A stretch of 64,000 nt of DNA from Thelonectria olida. Its lineage: Eukaryota > Ascomycota > Sordariomycetes > Hypocreales > Nectriaceae. The stretch is taken from contig JAGPYM010000016.1 of NCBI GenBank assembly GCA_020736575.1, positions 186,001 to 250,000 of the forward strand, given 5' to 3'. Shown here piece by piece: positions 52,624 to 64,000 of the stretch; the stretch's first letter is position 1, and every line of letters starts with the position of its first letter. Both the position numbers and the translations under genes were made by a program. Under the pieces are notes generated by a model. That model saw nothing but the letters and a program-made list of their open reading frames with translations. It was not told the origin of the DNA and made no database searches.

Positions 52624-54332
52624 GAGCGAGCGAGCAAGTATGGTGATGATGATGAATGGTGTATGAGGTGACGAGAAAATGAGGTGTACTGTAAACCAAT
52701 GCAAGAATCGACTCGTGCGAGATTAAAAGATAGAAGATACCCGAATTCCACGGATAAGCTGTAACGCAAGCATGGTTGGTGAAGCATCATCTTCCTCGGA
52801 ACTGTCACATCGTTGTCGAGTTCGAATGTCCTGAGACACTGGATCGATCTAGACCTCGCCCCAGACTGAGCCAGTGTTTGAGTAAGAATGAGGCCTCATA
52901 ACATGCGCCTTGCTACTCCTGGTAAGTGATCAACGTAGATTCTGAATATTCGAATAGCGATCTTCCTACCCGGAAACCGAGGACACTAACTAGATATCGC
53001 TATGATCAAGGCTGAGGTGATGCTATGATCTCATGGATTCCTTTGTCATCACATCTACCCTACAACTGTTCACACTCAAATCGGGGAAAGCGAGTTTGGT
53101 GAGATGGACGCTCCATTCCTGCCTTCCCATTGGGCAGTCGCGCCTGGTAGGGCTATTGCAACCACCCGCAGAACGGCAGCGCACCCGAAAGAGCTCTAAA
53201 ATTAGTGCTCCCCATCCAATCGATTGTTGGTGCTGCGCCGCACTGGGGCTGAGGGGGTTCCTACTTTATGCGGATGCGGCCGACAGAGTGCAGACTTGCC
53301 GTTCAACAACACGATCTGCAGATTGAATGCAGAGTAAAGAAGCGCGTTGATTTCTCGCGTTCGTGTGCGGAATTGAGTGTGGTTGTACGCTCTAAAGAGC
53401 TTCCGTTTCTATGCCTTGGGCGTCGAATTCTACATCCTCAGCGGTCAATCCTGCTTCAGGTTTGCCAACACTGCCATGTGGGTGCTGCAGGTGCTGTTGG
53501 CCGCCTTCCCTCGGGTGGGAACGCACAGTCAGAACTTCGGACGTTATTTCTTACATGCAACCATGTGCCCAGCTGGCAGGTGCATGCCGGCGTTCCTTCC
53601 ATTTTCCCATCCCCAGTCTCGAGGGCATGTTACCGTTGCTGAGCGATCAATGAGAAGGAAGGAGCTCCCGATGGGGTCAAGGGCTTCTTAGGCAGGCACT
53701 AAATCGCTGACGGGAAGGGCAGGAGGCTGTTGGCTGGCGATGGAAGTGGGTGACTTGGCTGGGCCCCAGTTTGCCAGTCTCGTCGAAATTACTGTAAAGG
53801 TCATCGTCATTCTTCTCCAACTTGCCACGATTGTATTTTCGTTTTCCTCTCCTCTCATCTCGTTGCAGATCTCTCATCTTAGAAGTTCTGTCGCGACTCA
53901 ATCGTCACTCGTTAAAACGCCACAACTGATCAGCGTCTTGTCGCTTTCTACTCCGTAGGGGTTGGCGCAAAACTTCCCTCCTCTCCTCCCACAGGATCCC
54001 AGACTATTTTCGGACGTTTTGTCGTTCGAGGCTGGGGTGGCTGAACGTAACTGGAACTAGTGATACTTGTCTAGCTAGTTTCTTGTTCGCGCCTCTTCAC
54101 TCCTGCCCTTTCCTCCTTTGGCCTCTTCTCCCTGGTGACGCCCTCGTTCATCTAAAACCACATTCGTTTCCATCGGTCGCTTCGTCGCAACCATCACCGT
54201 CGCCTTGTTTCCGGCCTTCTTGGAGCAGCGACTTACCTCACAGACCTCGCTGGATCACCAGCTTTCGATTGAAGACGAGAATACAACCCTTCCATTCGTT
54301 TGCCGCCGTCGCAGGCACTTCACCCACTAACC
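52624..54332. other. Intergenic spacer, no gene seen
   Basis: About 1.7 kb. Several overlapping short frames are present on the plus strand at 53270-53690, none with a recognisable product. The final 400 bases are pyrimidine-rich and fit a promoter and leader for the surface-protein gene. Confidence 0.55.
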
Positions 54333-55313
54333 ATGGCGCCCCGATCGGTTTGGTCGACACTCCCATTGCTCCTCCTCCTCGCGCCCGCCCTCGCTATCGA
54401 AAACGACTTTGGCTTCTACCCGAAAAACTCCCAGGACTGTCTCTACCAGTCTGCCAACGACGCAGGATGCACCTCTGGCACCCTGTCCAAGCTCAACACC
54501 TGTCTCTGCGGCAATAATAATGATTTCGTCATCAATACGGCCAAATGCCTCGGAAAGAACGACACGGCTGATGTCGACGAGGTTTACACCAAGATGTCGT
54601 CTGCCTGTAACAACTCTGGCACGCCGCTGAGTGTCACCCAGGAGGAGTTCCAACAAGCGGCAGAGGAAGGCGAGAATGCGTCGAGCAGTACTACGACCGA
54701 GGCGACAACTTCGGCGACAACTTCGGCGACAACTTCAGCGACAACTTCAGCGACAACTTCGGCGACACAGACATCATCAGCTACACAAGAATCAGAATTC
54801 GTGACGACGACATCGGGCGGGAAAACAGTGACTGTAGTGCCCACGCAGACCAACGACAATAAAGACGACGATGACTCGAGCGGCCTTTCCACTGGCGTCA
54901 CGATAGGAATTGGAGTTGGAGCTGCTGCTATTGGAGCTGGCGTCGTCGGTGCAATCATCTTTTTCGTTCTCCGCCGTCGTCGTAGAAAGGGCGAGGAATC
55001 GCACCCTATGCTCCCTAATAGTAACTACAACAACCCCTCGACGTTCCCGCCCACGGACCCCGCTCAAGGCATGGGCTACCAGGACAACAAGCCTCCTGCT
55101 TGGGCTGGAGGTGTGACACCGAGCCCCGATCCTAGTAAGGGCTGGCAAACACCGGTCCCTCAACCATACACCGGCGCATATGTCCCGCCTCACACTGCGG
55201 GAGCTCTACCGACGCAGCCGCAAGTATTTGAGATGGATGGTGGAACGCCGCAACCCGGGACGCAAGGAGGTGCAGTGGAGATGCCGGTACAACAAGGTGG
55301 ATGGCAGCGGTAG
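54333..55313 (+). CDS. Secreted six-Cys domain, single-span surface protein (sensor-like)
   Basis: Intronless, 326 residues; the start is the first real ATG. Residues 1-21 are a signal peptide (MAPRSVWSTLPLLLLLAPALA). A compact six-Cys domain follows (DCLYQSANDAGC, LNTCLCGNNNDFV, AKCLG, SACNNSG); CFEM domains have eight Cys, so this is a smaller relative or a different fold. A Ser/Thr-rich stalk contains five exact or near copies of ATTS, coded by a 12-bp repeat. One membrane helix (GVTIGIGVGAAAIGAGVVGA) ends in a stop-transfer RRRRRK, and the proline-rich cytoplasmic tail lies at about 225-326. This layout (Cys domain, O-glycosylated stalk, one span, short tail) is that of fungal wall-stress sensor-like proteins, but no WSC domain is present. 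Role inferred only from layout. Confidence 0.8.
   Translation: MAPRSVWSTLPLLLLLAPALAIENDFGFYPKNSQDCLYQSANDAGCTSGTLSKLNTCLCGNNNDFVINTAKCLGKNDTADVDEVYTKMSSACNNSGTPLSVTQEEFQQAAEEGENASSSTTTEATTSATTSATTSATTSATTSATQTSSATQESEFVTTTSGGKTVTVVPTQTNDNKDDDDSSGLSTGVTIGIGVGAAAIGAGVVGAIIFFVLRRRRRKGEESHPMLPNSNYNNPSTFPPTDPAQGMGYQDNKPPAWAGGVTPSPDPSKGWQTPVPQPYTGAYVPPHTAGALPTQPQVFEMDGGTPQPGTQGGAVEMPVQQGGWQR
54702..54761 (+). repeat. 12-bp tandem repeat, five copies, in coding sequence
   Basis: Five head-to-tail copies of GCGACAACTTCG, with A for G at the last base in two copies. Each encodes Ala-Thr-Thr-Ser in the stalk of the surface protein. Copy-number change would alter stalk length without shifting the frame. 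Confidence 0.9.
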
Positions 55314-57377: not shown

Positions 57378-59485
57378 CTAAGCCCACTTTCCAAGAAGAC
57401 TCATCAGAACCATGCCAGTAACGAGTCCGAACAGAGAAAGAGTCGTAGTTAGAGCATTCGCATCTGTCAACTCGCCGCCGAGCATCCAATCGTGAGCCCA
57501 CATCTCGACGAGACCAACCCAGACCAAAATACCCGCAGACAAGGCATCAAGCGTACCAATAGCAATCAGCGTCGAGGGATCGTTGCCGTTGAACTTCTTC
57601 AAAACACCGATGCCAATAGCCATGCCAATGGGCGTGACGAGTGCGAAGCCGGCGGCAAGGAAGAGCTTCTTGGACAGGGGCACGCTGGACGGCTGGGTTC
57701 GGTCGAACGAGGGCGCGGGCGCGTCGTGGGCGTGCATGTGCGAGTGGTGGGCGTGCGAGAAGGTGGCGCCGTGGCCGAGGGCGGCGATGCGGGTGCCCAG
57801 GGCGATGCCTTCGAACATTTGGTGGAAGATGATGACGATGGCGAGGGTGACGAAGAAGGAGTCGCCGGCGACGACGAGGGTGATGCCGATGACTGCGCTT
57901 GTTAGTAGATACTCATCATGTGGGAACGGAGCAGTGTCGTACGGAGAGAGTGGAAGATGATGCCGGCTTCCATGATGCTAATGTTCGCCAGCTCGGCAGA
58001 CGCGACGGCCTTGGAGGAGGGTTCGACTTCGGCTTCGTCGCTTTCGCTCTTCTTCTTGGCTTGCCAGCGCATGGCGCGCGTGACGAAGAACTCGATGAGG
58101 AACGAGATGAAGAGACCGGCCATGACGATGGCGGCCGTGGTGGCTTCGTACTTGAGCTCGCCGAGGCATTCATTGCCGAACATCATGCTCGCGTGGGTGA
58201 AGAGCTGTTCACGGGTAAGTTGGGATTGTGGAGGAGGGAGGAGGAAGGGAACACACGTGGACAAAGGCAGTGGAGATGATAACTCCGGTGCCGAATTGCT
58301 TGAGGACGGTGAGGAAGAGGTTGGTCTTGACTTGGACAAAGTTGGACATGAGAATTGGCCCAAAGACTCCTGCAACACGAAACATTAGGATGAGTGTTCA
58401 CGAGCATGGGGGAGAGATAAGAACGAACCGATACTACTGGCGACGAGGACGACGAAAAGCATGCCGATGCGGATTGGGATCTTGTAGTCGCGATCGGTGC
58501 GCTCGCACGAGGCAGAAGACTCGGACTCTTCAGAGCTGCCGCCGGTGCAATGTCTACGAAAGACAGGTTAGGCATCAGTTTATCAGGGATAGAATGCAGA
58601 GAAATAACTTACTCGACGCCGGCATGGAAGTGGCAGTGTTCTTCTTGGGGGTCTTCGTCTCCCGACTCAATGTCCTCGGCGGCCATGATGGCGACTTCGT
58701 CGTCGCCGGTCATGCAGTATCTTGTGCGTGTTAGCATTTATGTGGATTGAATATGATATCGATGGTGTGACGGGCGTTGAGGACTTACGTTTCGTCGCCG
58801 TGGCTGTGGCAGCCCGTGAACTGGGCTGGGACATCGCCAGTGGCCGTGATGGTGGTCTGGACGTAGTACTCCGTAGAGTCGGCTGAGCAGTATCTGTTCC
58901 GAGCATGTTAGTTAGAAAATTCAAGGTAGCAACGAAAGAGGTTGGCGTACACGGAGCTAGAGGAAAGGTGACAATCCGTGATGGCTGTGATACTGGACGT
59001 GGACCCGGTCTCTTTAGCCGTCGCCTCGGCCGTGTTGGAGGTGATGCTGGCGTCTGCGTCTACGACTTGGACTTCCCCGCCGCTTGGAGACATGCAGTAT
59101 CTGAAATACAATTAGCATTTGGTGCGAAATAAGGTGTGGATGAAGACTCACGTGTCGGTGCCGTGGTTGTGGCAGTCCGTGTACGAAGACGGCGCCTCAC
59201 CAGTGGCGGTTGCATCGGCAATGATGCGATACTCCGTCTCGCCGTCCATACAGTATCTGCGGCCGTTAGCTATTAGGATACCCCCGGGAAGGATGAAACG
59301 TACTGAACGGTGCCGTGCTCGTGACATCCTGTCAGCGACTCAAAGGCCTCGACTGTGGACGTAGCCGTGGTGTCTGCCCTGGCCACCATGACGGGGCTCA
59401 ACGAGGCCGAAACAAGGCCGAAGAAGAACAGAGCGCTGGCTGCCATGACGGCTGGCCTCCTGCAACTGTGTCTTGCGCAAGGCAT
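57378..59485 (-). CDS. ZIP zinc transporter with five-module Cys/His ectodomain (ZrfC-like)
   Basis: Nine exons on minus: 59485-59304, 59256-59152, 59100-58951, 58893-58789, 58720-58613, 58553-58429, 58369-58257, 58204-57943, 57892-57378; 554 residues. ATG 59446, in frame, is an alternative start at the signal-like MAASALFFFGLVSAS. The ectodomain (to about residue 240) has modules CHEHGTVQYC (54-63), CHNHGTDTYC (89-98), CHLSSSSVYC (139-148), CHSHGDETYC (174-183) and CHFHAGVEHC (210-219). Exons 1-5 each end inside a module. Eight-span ZIP core: IRIGMLFVVLVASS, FIEF-type TM3, EAGIIFHSLLIGITL (TM4) and HQMFEGIALG (TM5). The usual TM3-TM4 loop lacks His; a His cluster (SHAHHSHMHAHD) follows TM5. 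Family role: zinc uptake at the plasma membrane; A. fumigatus ZrfC has N-terminal zinc-binding motifs and serves alkaline, zinc-poor conditions. All splice sites read as GT..AG. Confidence 0.9.
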
Positions 59486-61011
59486 GATTGTGGTGTATAC
59501 GTGTGAGACTGCTTGTCTAAGTAGATTTGTTCTGGATGTGTTTGCGAAGGAATCCGGGCGAGAAAGAGGACGAAGAGCTGGCATGAGCCGAGTATAAACA
59601 GCAAACAAGACTTGACAGGGAGATAAACTCGTCTGGTTGCTCTGAACAACAACGGCTTTGACAGAGCCTCAAGGTTGGTGACGGCAACTCAAAGCCTAAG
59701 AGTCAAAGTCAAACACGACGTCTGAGGTAATCCATACAGCTACTCCTAGGAAAAGGCGAAGGTTCTCGGAGCATAATTAATATCCAAGCACCGACTGGAC
59801 GGCGTGGGTTTCTCTTCACCGGCGTGGGGGCTTGGGGGGAGGGGGATGAGCACAGCGGAGACCCTCGTACGGTTAGACCTTTGCTCTTCAACACATCAAG
59901 GTGCTCGCCTGTCGGGGGCCAGACGGATGCCAAGAGTTGAGTGAGCAAAAGGGCTTGAAGGGTTTGTGGGGCGATGGCAAACGAGGTTCGAGTCCGAGAG
60001 AGAAGAGGAGGAGGAGGGGGAGGTTCGTGTGTGGGTGATGTGACTATTACAACAAAGCAGTAGAAGATCCAGGTCCCAAGAGAGGACGAATTGATGTTGT
60101 TTCTTCTAGGTTCCTTGTACTCTGCGGGTCCCTTTTCCGCTCCTTAGGGCCTCAGGGCACGTCTTTCCTTCCACCAAAGGCACCTTCCATCACATTACTT
60201 CCAGGTTGACTACATACCTAGGTAGGTACCTACCTTACGTAGCAGTTTATGGGTGGCTCCATGGAGGAACCGGTCAAACCTCCAACACGATGGAGGCGTC
60301 TTCACAAGTAAATCGGATTCAGCGGCGTAATTGGTTCGTGGAAACGAACGCCAGCCCAGGATGTGTCAAGGCCGACAGGACGGCGTGGGATCTATAACGA
60401 CTCGGAAGCCCCGATTCGGCCCAACGACGGGGCTCAGTTACGTCGACGACACTACTTGTTCTTGTTCTTGTTTCCTCAGCCGACATCCACTGGCTCCTCA
60501 TGCGTGATCCTTGCTGGCTCGCCCATGCTGACAAGGTTGGCGAGAGAAACCTGAACAGTTGGAGAACCCTGATGGATAGATGGATCACGGCGCCAAGACC
60601 GACTTGGGATAGGTGAACAGACCGGCCCCTCCTTTGTTGGTGCATGGCTTGTTTGCATGGGGTTCGAAGTGAGTCAATTATTTTTTGCAAGGCCTTTATT
60701 CGTTCGGGAGAGAGAGTGTGGTGTGAGGCTATCGGACTATCCAGGTATGCTTATTAGAAGCTTAAACGTCTGAACTGACGATGGGCATTTGGCGTGGGAC
60801 TACTGTACCATGTTATGCATGGGTTATCACTAGAGAGTAAATATTCTATGAGAAACAGAACCCTGAGTAGAAATAATGGTTTGTTCAATTAAAAATAACA
60901 GCATTACTCTGCTGAACGAATACGTAAAAATCCCATAGTCTAGATATCATTGATCATCCTCCCCATGCATGTACACAGTTCTAGTCTAATGATCTAACCA
61001 GACCTTTTCAT
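59486..61011. other. Spacer between ZIP and His-rich protein genes; ZIP promoter
   Basis: About 1.5 kb holding the ZIP promoter (next to 59486) and the 3' UTR of the gene at 61012. It contains a Zap1-like candidate site at 59665-59675, a second CAAGGT at 59897-59902 and a perfect 16-bp palindrome AGGTAGGTACCTACCT at 60220-60235. No gene was recognised. Confidence 0.6.
59665..59675 (-). promoter_or_regulatory. Candidate zinc-response element upstream of the ZIP gene
   Basis: On the minus strand this reads ACCTTGAGGCT, matching 10 of 11 positions of the yeast Zap1 consensus ACCYTNARGGT. It lies about 180-190 bases upstream of the ZIP start. CAAGGT cores in the same orientation also occur at 59897-59902 and, upstream of the His-rich protein gene, at 61871-61876 and 62270-62275. 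A six-base core is common by chance; only the extended match is notable. Confidence 0.35.
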
Positions 61012-61717
61012 CTACAGAGCAAACACGGCAGCCGCAACAAGACCGAGGACAGGGACAATGTCCATGCCGGCAGCGTTGTTAGTGGGTGTCGCGGTGCTCT
61101 CTTCCTCGTCGGTGGGAGTCGCGTTGGCCGTAGGAGTAGAGTCGCTGCCCGCCTCGGTCGCGGTGCGAGCGCCATCGCAGTGCCTATTGAAAAGCCATTA
61201 GTCTCATTAACGAGGAAAATAAAGAGTATGAAACGCACCAGTGGTCGCCGTGAGGCTCGCACCCGTAAGACTCGGTAGGGCTGGCTGCCGCAGACGCAGT
61301 CTCCTCGTCCTCGTGGTCGTGGTCGTGCGTCTCGCTCTCAGCCGTCGTGGTGGCAGCGGCGGCAGAGGAAACGACAGTGGTCAGAGTAGCCCGGGAGCCT
61401 TCACAGTGGTAGTGGTCGCCGTGAGGCTCGCAGCCCCAAGACTCGGTGGGCGAGGCGCCCGCTGAGGCCGTGCCGGCCGAGTGGTCATGCTCGTCCTCGT
61501 CCTCATCCTCGTCGTGGTCGTGAGCCTCGGTGGTAGTGGCAGCGGCCGCGGCTTCGGTGACGGAGGTGCTCAAGGTGGCGCGGAGGCCTTCGCAGTGGTA
61601 GTGGTCGCCATGGGGCTCACAGCCGTAGGATTCGGTGGGAGAAGGACCGGCAGTCTCTGCGGCGAGAGCGGCAGGGAGGAGGCTCAGGAGAGCGACGGCG
61701 AGGGCGGAGGTCTTCAT
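61012..61717 (-). CDS. Secreted GPI-anchored His-rich protein with three C-x2-HG-x4-C modules
   Basis: Exons 61717-61239 and 61183-61012; 216 residues. Intron 61238-61184 (GTGCGT, branch ACTAAT, CAATAG) splits codon 160 after its second base. Residues 1-20 are a signal peptide (MKTSALAVALLSLLPAALAA). Three modules follow: CEPHGDHYHC at 33-42, CEPHGDHYHC at 96-105 and CEPHGDHWHC at 153-162, each in the frame PTES[YW]G-module-[ED]G. The linkers are Ala/Thr-rich and carry acidic His runs (AHDHDEDEDEDEHDH, ETHDHDHEDEE). After the third module comes a Thr/Pro stretch and a hydrophobic tail (MDIVPVLGLVAAAVFAL), a GPI signal. Clustered His, Cys and acidic residues strongly suggest zinc or copper binding at the wall. 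The module also occurs in the ZIP transporter 1.5 kb downstream with the intron at the same spot. Confidence 0.85.
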
Positions 61718-62578
61718 CTTGACTGAGTCGAGGTGGGATAACGAAGGTATCGTAACGAGTGACCGAGGATGATGTTGGCAAGAGGGAGGGAGATGTATCT
61801 AGGCGAGGAGGAAACAGATGGAGCTGTCTTTATAGTACCTACATGCAGTTGAGTTGGCCGACGGCGTGTGCAAGGTAAACGCGGGATGCACAGCTAGTAA
61901 AGCCTCCCGGATTACCTTTTTACGATTAGGGCTCCAGCTGAGGGACGGACAGACTAGCTAACTACATCACAGCTACCCACGTAACTGACTACTTCGTACC
62001 GGGCGTGTGGGATCTGCTCTCGGAGTCCGGGAAGACCCTGGGCGAGGGGCCGGTCTCACCGGTGGGGGGCTCATGATGGAGAACGAAGAGTTCCCCGTTA
62101 GTCGAGCAAGTTAAGCATGCCAAGAAGCATGATTCAACATACCACCGAGAAACGTGGGGATCATTTATGGGACTTTCTATTAGCAATGCTTCGACCGCGT
62201 CCATGCGACAGAGAGAAACAAGTCGAGGCAAAATAGGGCCTGGTCTTGGCATATACTTGGCGTGGCCATCAAGGTCCTCACCTGGAGGGCAGAGGCAATT
62301 ATTCCGCTCACCGAGCGTTGGGAGGAGTTTTCCATTGGACCACAAGGTGGAAATGCGAAAGATGGAGAAACGAGTTGCGATCATGTAAAAGAAAACGAGA
62401 CAACAGCTTGCCAAGAAGTGTCCATCCAGGTTTATTTGCGTTCCTCGTTTGCCTTCCTGATTGTATCCAGCCTATTCGTGGGTAAAGGAGTGGGCTTGTC
62501 AGTTGCTTGAAAAGTGCATCAGACTCAGCCATACTGTTAAATCTGACCAGAGATTCTTCACACCGGCCTGGTGAAGAG
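61718..62578. other. Divergent promoter region
   Basis: About 0.86 kb between the His-rich protein gene (-) and the N2227 gene (+). CAAGGT occurs at 61871-61876 (about 155 bases upstream of the His-rich gene) and at 62270-62275. No gene was recognised. Confidence 0.55.
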
Positions 62579-64000
62579 ATGGCTCTCTCGGTGGTGTGGC
62601 TGATAGTCGTCGCCAGCTTCCTACCCTCACTGTGCGCAGCGACTGAGGCAGACATTGTACCAGTAGCCTCGCCCCAAAACGACCCAGACTTGGCATCAAT
62701 AGCTTTGGATGACAATGCTTTGGTTCGTATTTCTACCTTTTGAGCCTCTGACAACAGTCAACGTTCTTCTGACACAGTACAGACGAATGCACTCAACTTC
62801 CCCATCGAGGTTCACCAAGTTATCACAACTCTGGAGCAAACTTCTGGTCAGCCCAGCACACCTCGCCACATTAAAGAAAAACAGAGGTTGTTAGAGACCT
62901 TTGTCAAACCAAAGGGCACCTTGCCAGCCGGACATCCTAGGCACCGTCTCCTAGATGCCCTTCATGGATTTTCTACCTACCAAGATCGCCAAAAGGCTGA
63001 ACTGGACCGACTAAGGGGTCTGTATAAACATGCTTCCAAGGCCCAGAAGTCGGTAAGCGACATCTCAAAGTGAATCTGTCAAAATGCTTCCTGGCTAATG
63101 ATATGGTAGCTACTAAACCGCGTCGTCCAATACTCAAAGAAGTTTGCTAGAATCGACCATATCTTGGCTAAGAACCAAGAACTTTGCAACCACATTGTGA
63201 AGAGTGCTCTTGAGTTTTATGATATTCCCTCCGAGGAGCTTGACACGCACATCAATGATAGGGAGGCAGCTGGGAAGAGGGGAGACAAGATTGCTGTCTC
63301 CCAAGCACTGAAACATTATGTTCGCGATTGGACAGAAACGGGAATGCACGAGCGTGACAAGCCATTTCGTTGTCTTATAAAAACATTGGAAGATATGTTT
63401 CAAGATCGAAATGTAGACTCAATTCCTGTCAAGATTTTGCTGCCTGGTGCTGGGCTGGGTCGACTTGGGTTTGACATTGCTGCCCTTGGAGGTATGAAGG
63501 CTCGCCACAACACATCGCGGGAGCTGATATTGACGTTGAAATCAGGCTTCAAAGTTACCATCAACGAGTGGTCTATGTACATGAACGTCGCCTACCGATA
63601 TCTCGAGGCCAACCGAGCCCGACACGGCGAATCTGTGTATCCATTTATCGATGGGTGGTCGCATCATGCATCGGAAGCTGACATGCATAGAAAGCTCGTA
63701 TTCCCCGACGTGACCATCAACGCGAGCGCCGTGCTCATGGTCGAAGGCGACTTTACCACGGCCTTTAAAGACCAAGCGGGCAGATACGACGTCGTCCTTA
63801 CATACTTCTTCATCGACACGGCGCGCAACCTCATGACGTACTTTGACACCATCAAAAAGGTGCTCAAGCCCGGCGGTCGCTGGATCAACCTTGGTCCTCT
63901 GCTCTACGGTACGGGGCCGTTTGTGCAGCTCACGCTCGAGGAGATTGTGCTCGTCACCGAGGCGATGGGGTTCGAGTACTTGGATACGGACGCTTCGTGC
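62579..64000 (+). CDS. N2227-domain (carnosine N-methyltransferase-like) protein, 5' part only
   Basis: Exons 62579-62722, 62783-63052, 63110-63491 and 63546 to beyond the window; 417 residues visible. Introns: 62723-62782 (GTTCGT..GTACAG), 63053-63109 (GTAAGC..GGTAG) and 63492-63545 (GTATGA, branch TTGAC, ATCAG). The last is 54 nt and stop-free, so unspliced reading inserts 18 residues between ALG and FKVTINEWS, where the family has none. The core has the SAM-binding LLPGAGLGRLGFDIAALG, the N2227 signature INEWSMYMNVAYRYL and VVLTYFFIDTARN, then LKPGGRWINLGPLLYG. Family members methylate carnosine/anserine-like or other small substrates. The modelled N-terminus (MALSVVWLIVVASFLPSLCAA) looks like a signal peptide, unusual for this family; the true start needs transcript support. 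Confidence 0.85.

What the first reader, a model, noticed from the sequence alone, without database searches (positions are those of the whole stretch)
57378..61717. Same C-x2-HG-x4-C module, cut by the same intron, in a ZIP transporter and its neighbouring GPI wall protein
Seen: the transporter ectodomain has five modules (CHEHGTVQYC, CHNHGTDTYC, CHLSSSSVYC, CHSHGDETYC, CHFHAGVEHC) and the adjacent secreted protein has three (CEPHGDHYHC twice, CEPHGDHWHC). In each of the five ZIP modules, and in the third module of the wall protein, an intron splits the codon two places before the last Cys, after its second base. Shared motif plus identical intron position and phase argue for descent from one module rather than convergence. 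Inference: the wall protein captures zinc and passes it to the transporter.
Basis: partly seen in the sequence, partly recalled or inferred. Interest (0 to 1): 0.88.

Follow-up and report, generated by a model that had tools for sequence, protein, structure and literature searches.

The report
Zinc transporter paired with His-rich wall protein
In this fungus, and in a number of relatives, a zinc transporter with repeated metal-binding modules sits next to a gene for an unstudied histidine-rich wall protein with look-alike modules, which suggests a second kind of fungal zinc-capture locus beside the known Pra1 one.

Summary
In Thelonectria olida the ZIP gene (59485-57378, minus) has five C-x8-C modules, each cut by a phase-2 intron in codon 8. 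The adjacent 216-aa protein (61717-61012, minus) has three CEPHGD-H-[YW]-HC modules; its only intron falls at the same place in the third. The ZIP is a ZrfC/Zrt1-type importer whose modules are partly known: "four zinc-binding motifs" in ZrfC, and CHFHAGVEHC, a published zinc site of Candida Zrt1. The neighbour belongs to an unnamed family (PF28209) on which my searches found no paper.

New here: the two genes are linked in 18 of 22 species where both were listed. The two best ZafA-type zinc-response sites of the 64 kb lie upstream of these two genes. T. olida keeps a Pra1/Aspf2 homologue elsewhere, with no ZIP match on its contig.

Descent of both module sets from one module is not established: residue similarity beyond C/H/C is marginal, and the intron, steady in ZIP modules, shifts by 0-2 bases or lies elsewhere in wall-family relatives.

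Best reading: a Pra1-like zinc capture/receptor gene pair with a wall-anchored, non-Pra1 partner. Zinc binding and transfer are inferred.

The parts
57378..59485 (-). ZIP zinc transporter gene (ZrfC/Zrt1 type), 9 exons, 554 aa; N-terminal ectodomain with five C-x8-C modules, then the membrane domain
   Evidence: gene model; Pfam Zip PF02535 121.6 bits against cut-off 35.1; relatives
59250..59326 (-). ZIP module 1 CHEHGTVQYC, split by intron 59303-59257
   Evidence: intron and phase; module ends counted from it
59094..59174 (-). ZIP module 2 CHNHGTDTYC, split by intron 59151-59101
   Evidence: intron and phase; module ends counted from it
58887..58973 (-). ZIP module 3 CHLSSSSVYC (no second His), split by intron 58950-58894
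   Evidence: intron and phase; module ends counted from it
58714..58811 (-). ZIP module 4 CHSHGDETYC, split by intron 58788-58721
   Evidence: intron and phase; module ends counted from it
58547..58635 (-). ZIP module 5 CHFHAGVEHC, split by intron 58612-58554; same motif as the published Zn site of C. albicans Zrt1
61012..61717 (-). Secreted His-rich wall protein gene, 216 aa, signal peptide and GPI-like tail (both read by eye), PF28209 family
   Evidence: P0001 at 100%, PF28209 precomputed
61592..61621 (-). wall module 1 CEPHGDHYHC (no intron)
   Evidence: position counted from residue numbers
61403..61432 (-). wall module 2 CEPHGDHYHC (no intron)
   Evidence: position counted from residue numbers
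61177..61261 (-). wall module 3 CEPHGDHWHC, split by intron 61238-61184 (phase 2, TG|G)
62265..62279 (+). best ZafA-type zinc-response (ZR) site in the window, GCCATCAAGGTCCTC, 548 bp upstream of the wall gene (also about 314 bp upstream of a divergent CARME gene)
   Evidence: rank 1 (17.4 bits)
60562..60576 (-). second-best ZR-type site, TCCATCAGGGTTCTC, about 1.08 kb upstream of the ZIP gene
   Evidence: rank 2 (14.4 bits)
59892..59906 (+). weaker ZR-type site CACATCAAGGTGCTC, 407 bp upstream of the ZIP gene
   Evidence: rank 20 (10.0 bits)
62031..62045 (-). ZR-type site TCGCCCAGGGTCTTC, 314 bp upstream of the wall gene
   Evidence: rank 7 (12.6 bits)

Best explanation
A zinc-uptake gene pair that works like the PRA1-ZRT1 / aspf2-zrfC locus but with a different extracellular partner. 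The wall protein, secreted and probably GPI-anchored in the wall, carries three hairpin modules (CEPHGD-H-[YW]-HC) joined by His/Asp/Glu-rich linkers, and would concentrate zinc at the cell surface. The ZrfC-type ZIP would take it over on its own extracellular C-H-x-H modules, ending with CHFHAGVEHC next to the membrane domain, and import it. Both genes would be switched on by a Zap1/ZafA factor under zinc shortage. Shown: gene structures, modules, conserved linkage, zinc-response-like sites, ZIP membership. Inferred: GPI anchoring, zinc as the wall protein's ligand, transfer between the proteins. In the predicted models the turn falls at positions 5-6, so the two Cys would face each other across the hairpin, and E2/H4/H7/H9 of the wall module would share one face. 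That would be a His/Glu metal site on a Cys-closed hairpin; no coordinates were measured.
For: Linked ZIPs are spread over several branches of a tree of 50 of the 120 listed ZIPs. Ranks 1 and 2 of the A. fumigatus ZR matrix over both strands of 64 kb lie within 1.2 kb upstream of the two genes; the paralogous ZIP has 4 of its locus's top 6 sites in its promoter, and the Pra1 homologue has two upstream. CHFHAGVEHC is in 114 of 120 listed ZIPs and is a published zinc site of Zrt1. The similar Aspf2 tail CHTHEGGQLHC binds zinc by two thiolates and two imidazoles. ZrfC's N-terminus with its motifs matters for virulence-related zinc uptake (passages of reviews). No ZIP match was listed on the contig of T. 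olida's Pra1 homologue, and Pra1 is reported lost in N. crassa and unlinked in F. graminearum, while the wall family was listed in three other Neurospora species and many Fusarium.
Against: I found no expression, binding or interaction data for the wall protein. Four of 22 species show no linkage, and 7 of the 18 are known only to share a contig. The strongest ZR site is also about 314 bp upstream of the divergent CARME methyltransferase gene. The ZR matrix comes from another order and from part of a table; in the Pra1 locus the best-scoring site lies elsewhere (L027 9247). T. olida still has Pra1, so the wall protein need not replace it. The surveys cover only the best 120 listed of 184 and of 270 hits.
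Confidence: 0.6

Rival explanations
1. The two module sets are unrelated by descent. Both evolved as short disulfide-or-metal hairpins under selection for zinc handling, and the matching intron in the third wall module is a coincidence or a later insertion.
For: Residue similarity beyond C, H and C is marginal: hhalign score 17.1, reached by 4 of 60 column-shuffled controls. Wall-family intron position varies: phase 2, 1 or 0 in codon 8, or codon 4. The Pra1 tail module of T. olida, CHTHDNGDVHC, has its intron before the module, not inside.
Against: Identical length, Cys spacing and predicted turn; exact codon and phase in T. olida, in module 3 of Dactylonectria with a right half of module 1 that also fits (unspliced P0015 against spliced P0003), and in the ORF P0112 of unnamed origin; about 0.005 by simple chance.
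Confidence: 0.5
2. The wall protein is a zinc buffer, store or detoxifier, or a wall scaffold that merely shares regulation with the transporter, and does not hand zinc to it.
For: His/Asp/Glu-rich linkers and GPI-like tail suit a bulk sink; no interaction could be tested. The family is also found in Aspergillus, where zrfC's published neighbour is aspf2.
Against: Conserved linkage to a Zrt1/ZrfC-type importer, with sites of the zinc-shortage type upstream.
Confidence: 0.3
3. The metal is not mainly zinc (copper, nickel or iron), or the modules are purely structural disulfide hairpins.
For: C-x8-C with facing Cys outside the cell may be a disulfide; related peptides also bind Ni and, by its title, a Zrt2 loop binds Cu (listing).
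Against: ZIP family, ZR-type sites, and measured zinc binding of Zrt1 and Aspf2 peptides.
Confidence: 0.12

Closest known systems
PRA1-ZRT1 (ZRT101) locus of Candida albicans / aspf2-zrfC of Aspergillus fumigatus
   Same: An extracellular protein gene beside a Zrt1/ZrfC-type ZIP; zinc-responsive sites upstream; Cys/His motifs on both partners; the transporter carries CHFHAGVEHC (Zrt1)
   Different: The partner here is not Pra1 (no HRXXH match, Pfam scan), is probably GPI-anchored rather than soluble, and is arranged head to tail rather than sharing one upstream region
ZrfC N-terminal zinc-binding motifs (Amich et al. 2010 and 2014, not read; seen through passages of the reviews PMC4343018 and PMC9785309)
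   Same: Long extracellular N-terminus with several putative zinc motifs in a ZIP of the same type
   Different: Five modules here, each cut by a phase-2 intron; the 120 listed relatives carry 2 to 9
PF28209 family (label precomputed by the protein search; no name or description available here)
   Same: The wall protein is a member by that label; CEPHGDHWHC is its commonest module (213 copies in the 120 listed proteins)
   Different: No function found in the searches made; linkage to ZIP genes is new to me

Membership tests
ZIP zinc transporters (PF02535) | Pfam Zip domain above gathering score | tested here: met
   121.6 bits against 35.1
ZIP zinc transporters (PF02535) | ZIP membrane fold | tested here: met
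ZrfC/Zrt1 (zincophore-locus) ZIP subgroup | long extracellular N-terminus with Cys/His motifs ending in CHFHAGVEHC | tested here: met
   present in the window gene model and in 114 of 120 listed relatives
ZrfC/Zrt1 (zincophore-locus) ZIP subgroup | induction by zinc limitation through Zap1/ZafA | tested here: inconclusive
   ZR-type sites upstream; expression not testable
Pra1/Aspf2 zincophore | HRXXH domain (PF13933) | tested here: not met
   no PF13933 match of the wall protein up to E 1; the HRXXH homologue lies on contig C133
Pra1/Aspf2 zincophore | gene linked to a Zrt1/ZrfC-type ZIP | tested here: met
   18 of 22 species
Pra1/Aspf2 zincophore | binds zinc and delivers it to the transporter | not testable with these tools
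   needs purified proteins
PF28209 | match to the Pfam model | tested here: inconclusive
   precomputed label on P0001; the model is not in the local library
GPI-anchored wall proteins | signal peptide plus C-terminal omega site and hydrophobic tail | not tested
   read by eye only; some relatives so named

The most novel reading that the evidence does not exclude
A second, Pra1-independent zinc capture/receptor locus. A wall-anchored protein of family PF28209 and its ZIP receptor share an intron-bearing metal hairpin, copied exon by exon in the receptor and passed to (or from) the neighbouring gene, and this pair takes over zinc scavenging in lineages where Pra1 was lost or unlinked.
Probability: 0.3. 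Interest if true: 0.78.

Novelty: new variant of a known kind. Interest (0 to 1): 0.6.

Why it matters
The papers seen here describe extracellular protein-based zinc capture in fungi mainly for one protein, Pra1/Aspf2, which some fungi have lost or unlinked. A widespread second partner at the same type of transporter could explain how such fungi scavenge zinc, would give an unnamed Pfam family a testable role, and would let the general question of how an extracellular protein hands zinc to a ZIP be tested in a non-pathogen such as Neurospora.

Tried and rejected
Common descent by sequence profile: ZIP-repeat modules (202, from 57 of the 120 listed ZIPs) against wall modules (136, from 47 of the 120 listed wall proteins) gave hhalign score 17.1; 4 of 60 shuffled controls reached it, so this does not support homology. 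For comparison, ZIP repeats against the last ZIP module scored 21.1, and the last ZIP module against the wall 9.4 over 4 columns.

Pra1 as a third carrier of the same intron: its CHTHDNGDVHC lies whole in the last exon with the intron upstream, read by eye, so rejected.

Module-bearing secreted proteins other than ZIPs: the ectodomain-only search returned 21 hits; the named ones were zinc transporters or hypothetical proteins, and no new family emerged. Own-genome searches with the two proteins found these genes, the C144 ZIP and other ZIP-like places that I did not examine.

Fold searches: no PDB match for the wall model (pTM 0.24) and no chain in a sequence-profile search; no PDB sequence match for P0121. 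For the ZIP model, designed beta-propellers at E 0.2-0.3 are noise level; the second look covered essentially the membrane domain, so the ectodomain fold is untested.

Pfam weak matches among 47 wall proteins (VWC2L-like in 14, zf-CRD in 4, ZrgA in 2, Strep_his_triad in 1): the window protein's own best, zf-CRD, is below its cut-off (13.9 against 26.3); not used.

gzbA of A. fumigatus (ZafA-induced) was considered as a possible orthologue; the passages seen do not say what it encodes, so not used.

Literature: the held library has no paper containing HGDHWHC, CEPHGDH or PF28209; in the listings of six other searches I saw no paper on a ZIP-linked GPI protein, but I did not open most of them. 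Most subscription papers are not held.
Full report
WHAT IS THERE. The window is from Thelonectria olida (Nectriaceae): the spliced wall protein matches P0001, B0T10DRAFT_575951, at 100% over its length (lineage). The ZIP gene runs 59485 to 57378 on the minus strand in nine exons. Exons 2 to 5 are 105, 150, 105 and 108 nt, all phase 2 to phase 2, and each boundary falls in codon 8 of a ten-codon C-x8-C module. The wall gene, 61717 to 61012, has one intron, also phase 2 in codon 8, in its third module.

THE ZIP HALF IS A KNOWN KIND. The protein matches Pfam Zip far above cut-off. The ectodomain search gave 270 hits; the 120 listed carry 2 to 9 C-x2-H-x5-C modules, and 114 of 120 have CHFHAGVEHC. 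That decapeptide lies in a peptide described as a zinc site of C. albicans Zrt1, bound by three imidazoles and one thiolate (PMC9780748 and PMC8773511, passages). A. fumigatus ZrfC is described as having four putative zinc-binding motifs in a long extracellular N-terminus that matters for its role in the host (PMC4343018 and PMC9785309, passages). T. olida has a second such ZIP on contig C144 (P0240) with three modules, each cut at the same codon and phase, and the only wall-protein match in the genome is the window gene.

THE WALL PROTEIN IS AN UNNAMED FAMILY. It gave 184 hits; of the 120 listed, 119 carry the label PF28209, and the named ones are Pezizomycotina as far as I recognise them. 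That model is absent from the local Pfam copy. Motif CEPHGDHWHC occurs 213 times in the 120 listed proteins. No paper in the held library contains the motif strings searched or the accession.

THE TWO GENES TRAVEL TOGETHER. I took the species I could find named in both listed hit sets, leaving out Orbilia oligospora because different strains were listed, and counted a species as linked if any listed pair was. Four are not: Humicola hyalothermophila (both on contigs of about 8 kb), Chaetomium fimeti, Madurella fahalii and Parathielavia hyrcaniae (typed). Three linked species also have an unlinked extra copy of one gene (second ZIPs in Chaetomium sp. and C. tenue, a second wall gene in Apiosordaria). 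The Haloplaca partner P0258 is a 195-aa ectodomain-type fragment, not a whole ZIP. By recalled classification the linked set spans Hypocreales, Sordariales, Glomerellales, Phialemonium and a lichen fungus. On a quick tree of 50 of the 120 ZIPs (no support values examined) linked ZIPs sit on several separate branches, so the pairing looks old rather than a local accident.

CO-REGULATION IS PREDICTED. A matrix of 40 published A. fumigatus ZafA sites (those visible in passages of a table in PMC6070888) was scanned over both strands of the window. Rank 1 (62265, GCCATCAAGGTCCTC) is 548 bp upstream of the wall gene, and rank 2 (60562) about 1.08 kb upstream of the ZIP gene. That paper says sites within 1200 bp appear functionally relevant; those two stretches are 3.75% of the window, so both top ranks falling there has probability of about 0.0014 and four of the top seven about 6e-5 (simple, after the fact). 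Against: one of those four (62914) is just inside the limit and lies within the neighbouring CARME gene, ranks 3 to 5 lie elsewhere, and rank 1 is also upstream of that divergent gene (PF07942). The paralogous ZIP has four of its locus's top six sites in its promoter. The Pra1 homologue has two sites upstream, but the best site of its locus lies elsewhere.

RELATION TO PRA1. T. olida has a Pra1/Aspf2 homologue on contig C133; none of the 25 ZIP matches listed is on that contig. Its tail is CHTHDNGDVHC, similar to the Aspf2 tail measured to bind zinc by two thiolates and two imidazoles (PMC9780748, passages). A published survey reports PRA1-ZRT1 synteny in 61 of 87 Pra1-bearing species, with PRA1 lost in N. 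crassa and unlinked in F. graminearum (PMC5751234, passages). The wall family was listed for three other Neurospora species and many Fusarium. This makes the wall protein a candidate alternative partner; it does not show replacement.

DOES ONE MODULE UNDERLIE BOTH? ORFs that look unspliced, mostly from unnamed metagenome sources, show where introns sit. P0015 is identical over 123 residues and over its tail to spliced Dactylonectria P0003, apart from an insert exactly between W and HC of module 3, and it begins with the right half of module 1. Of 36 unnamed ZIP ORFs examined and one named fragment (P0258), the interrupted modules number 10, all broken after residue 8 (P0258). Nine fit a GT donor at phase 2 by the next residue or stop; the first break of P0252 does not. 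Eight orphan right halves begin R-[YFH]-C, as expected for AG|R. Of 19 unnamed wall ORFs, interrupted modules number 10: 3 after residue 8 (P0009 may be a contig end), 4 one base earlier (phase 1), 1 two bases earlier, 2 in codon 4 (phases inferred from residues by eye). Several ZIP ORFs (P0244, P0247, P0249) and many long ones, which may be spliced, have uninterrupted modules. The profile test is marginal. AlphaFold models put a hairpin turn at positions 5-6 in both: wall modules at block pLDDT about 76-85 in a poor overall model, ZIP modules about 83-94, the last one 62-66. I rate descent from one module about even.

MECHANISM. If hairpin register follows the predicted strands, Cys1 and Cys10 face each other while residues 2, 4, 7 and 9 share the opposite face: E, H, H, H in the wall module and H, H plus variable residues in ZIP modules. 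This suggests a Cys-closed hairpin holding zinc on a His/Glu face, with zinc passing from wall to ectodomain to the membrane site. The published peptide work instead has Cys thiolates binding zinc. This paragraph is inference.

VERDICT. The zinc pairing is well supported by linkage and promoter sites; capture and hand-over are untested; the intron argument is weaker than stated. The system looks like a new variant of the fungal zincophore locus.

Noticed in passing
58720-58613 (ZIP exon 5) and P0122, P0172, P0235: Deposited ZIP models of T. olida and two F. oxysporum entries join module 4's left half directly to HC, as if the frame-neutral exon 5 were skipped. Either a shared annotation habit or real exon skipping that would change the number of zinc modules.
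   Followed up: partly
P0145, P0148, P0156, P0160: Some metagenome ZIPs carry 6 to 9 modules whose ends alternate between types, as if a two-module unit had been duplicated.
   Followed up: no
62579-64000 (+): A carnosine N-methyltransferase-like gene (PF07942) starts divergently from the wall gene and shares its upstream region with the best zinc-response-type site.
   Followed up: partly
54300-55313 (+): By eye a secreted single-pass membrane protein with a Cys-rich head, Ser/Thr stalk and cytosolic tail; only sub-threshold Pfam matches (Podoplanin, Psg1).
   Followed up: partly
L023 7735, 7820, 8001, 8047: Four zinc-response-type sites within about 460 bp upstream of the paralogous ZIP on contig C144, one nearly identical to the window's best site.
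   Followed up: partly
P0072 and P0074: Two wall-family ORFs appear to have the third-module intron in the His codon (C|AC) instead of codon 8.
   Followed up: partly
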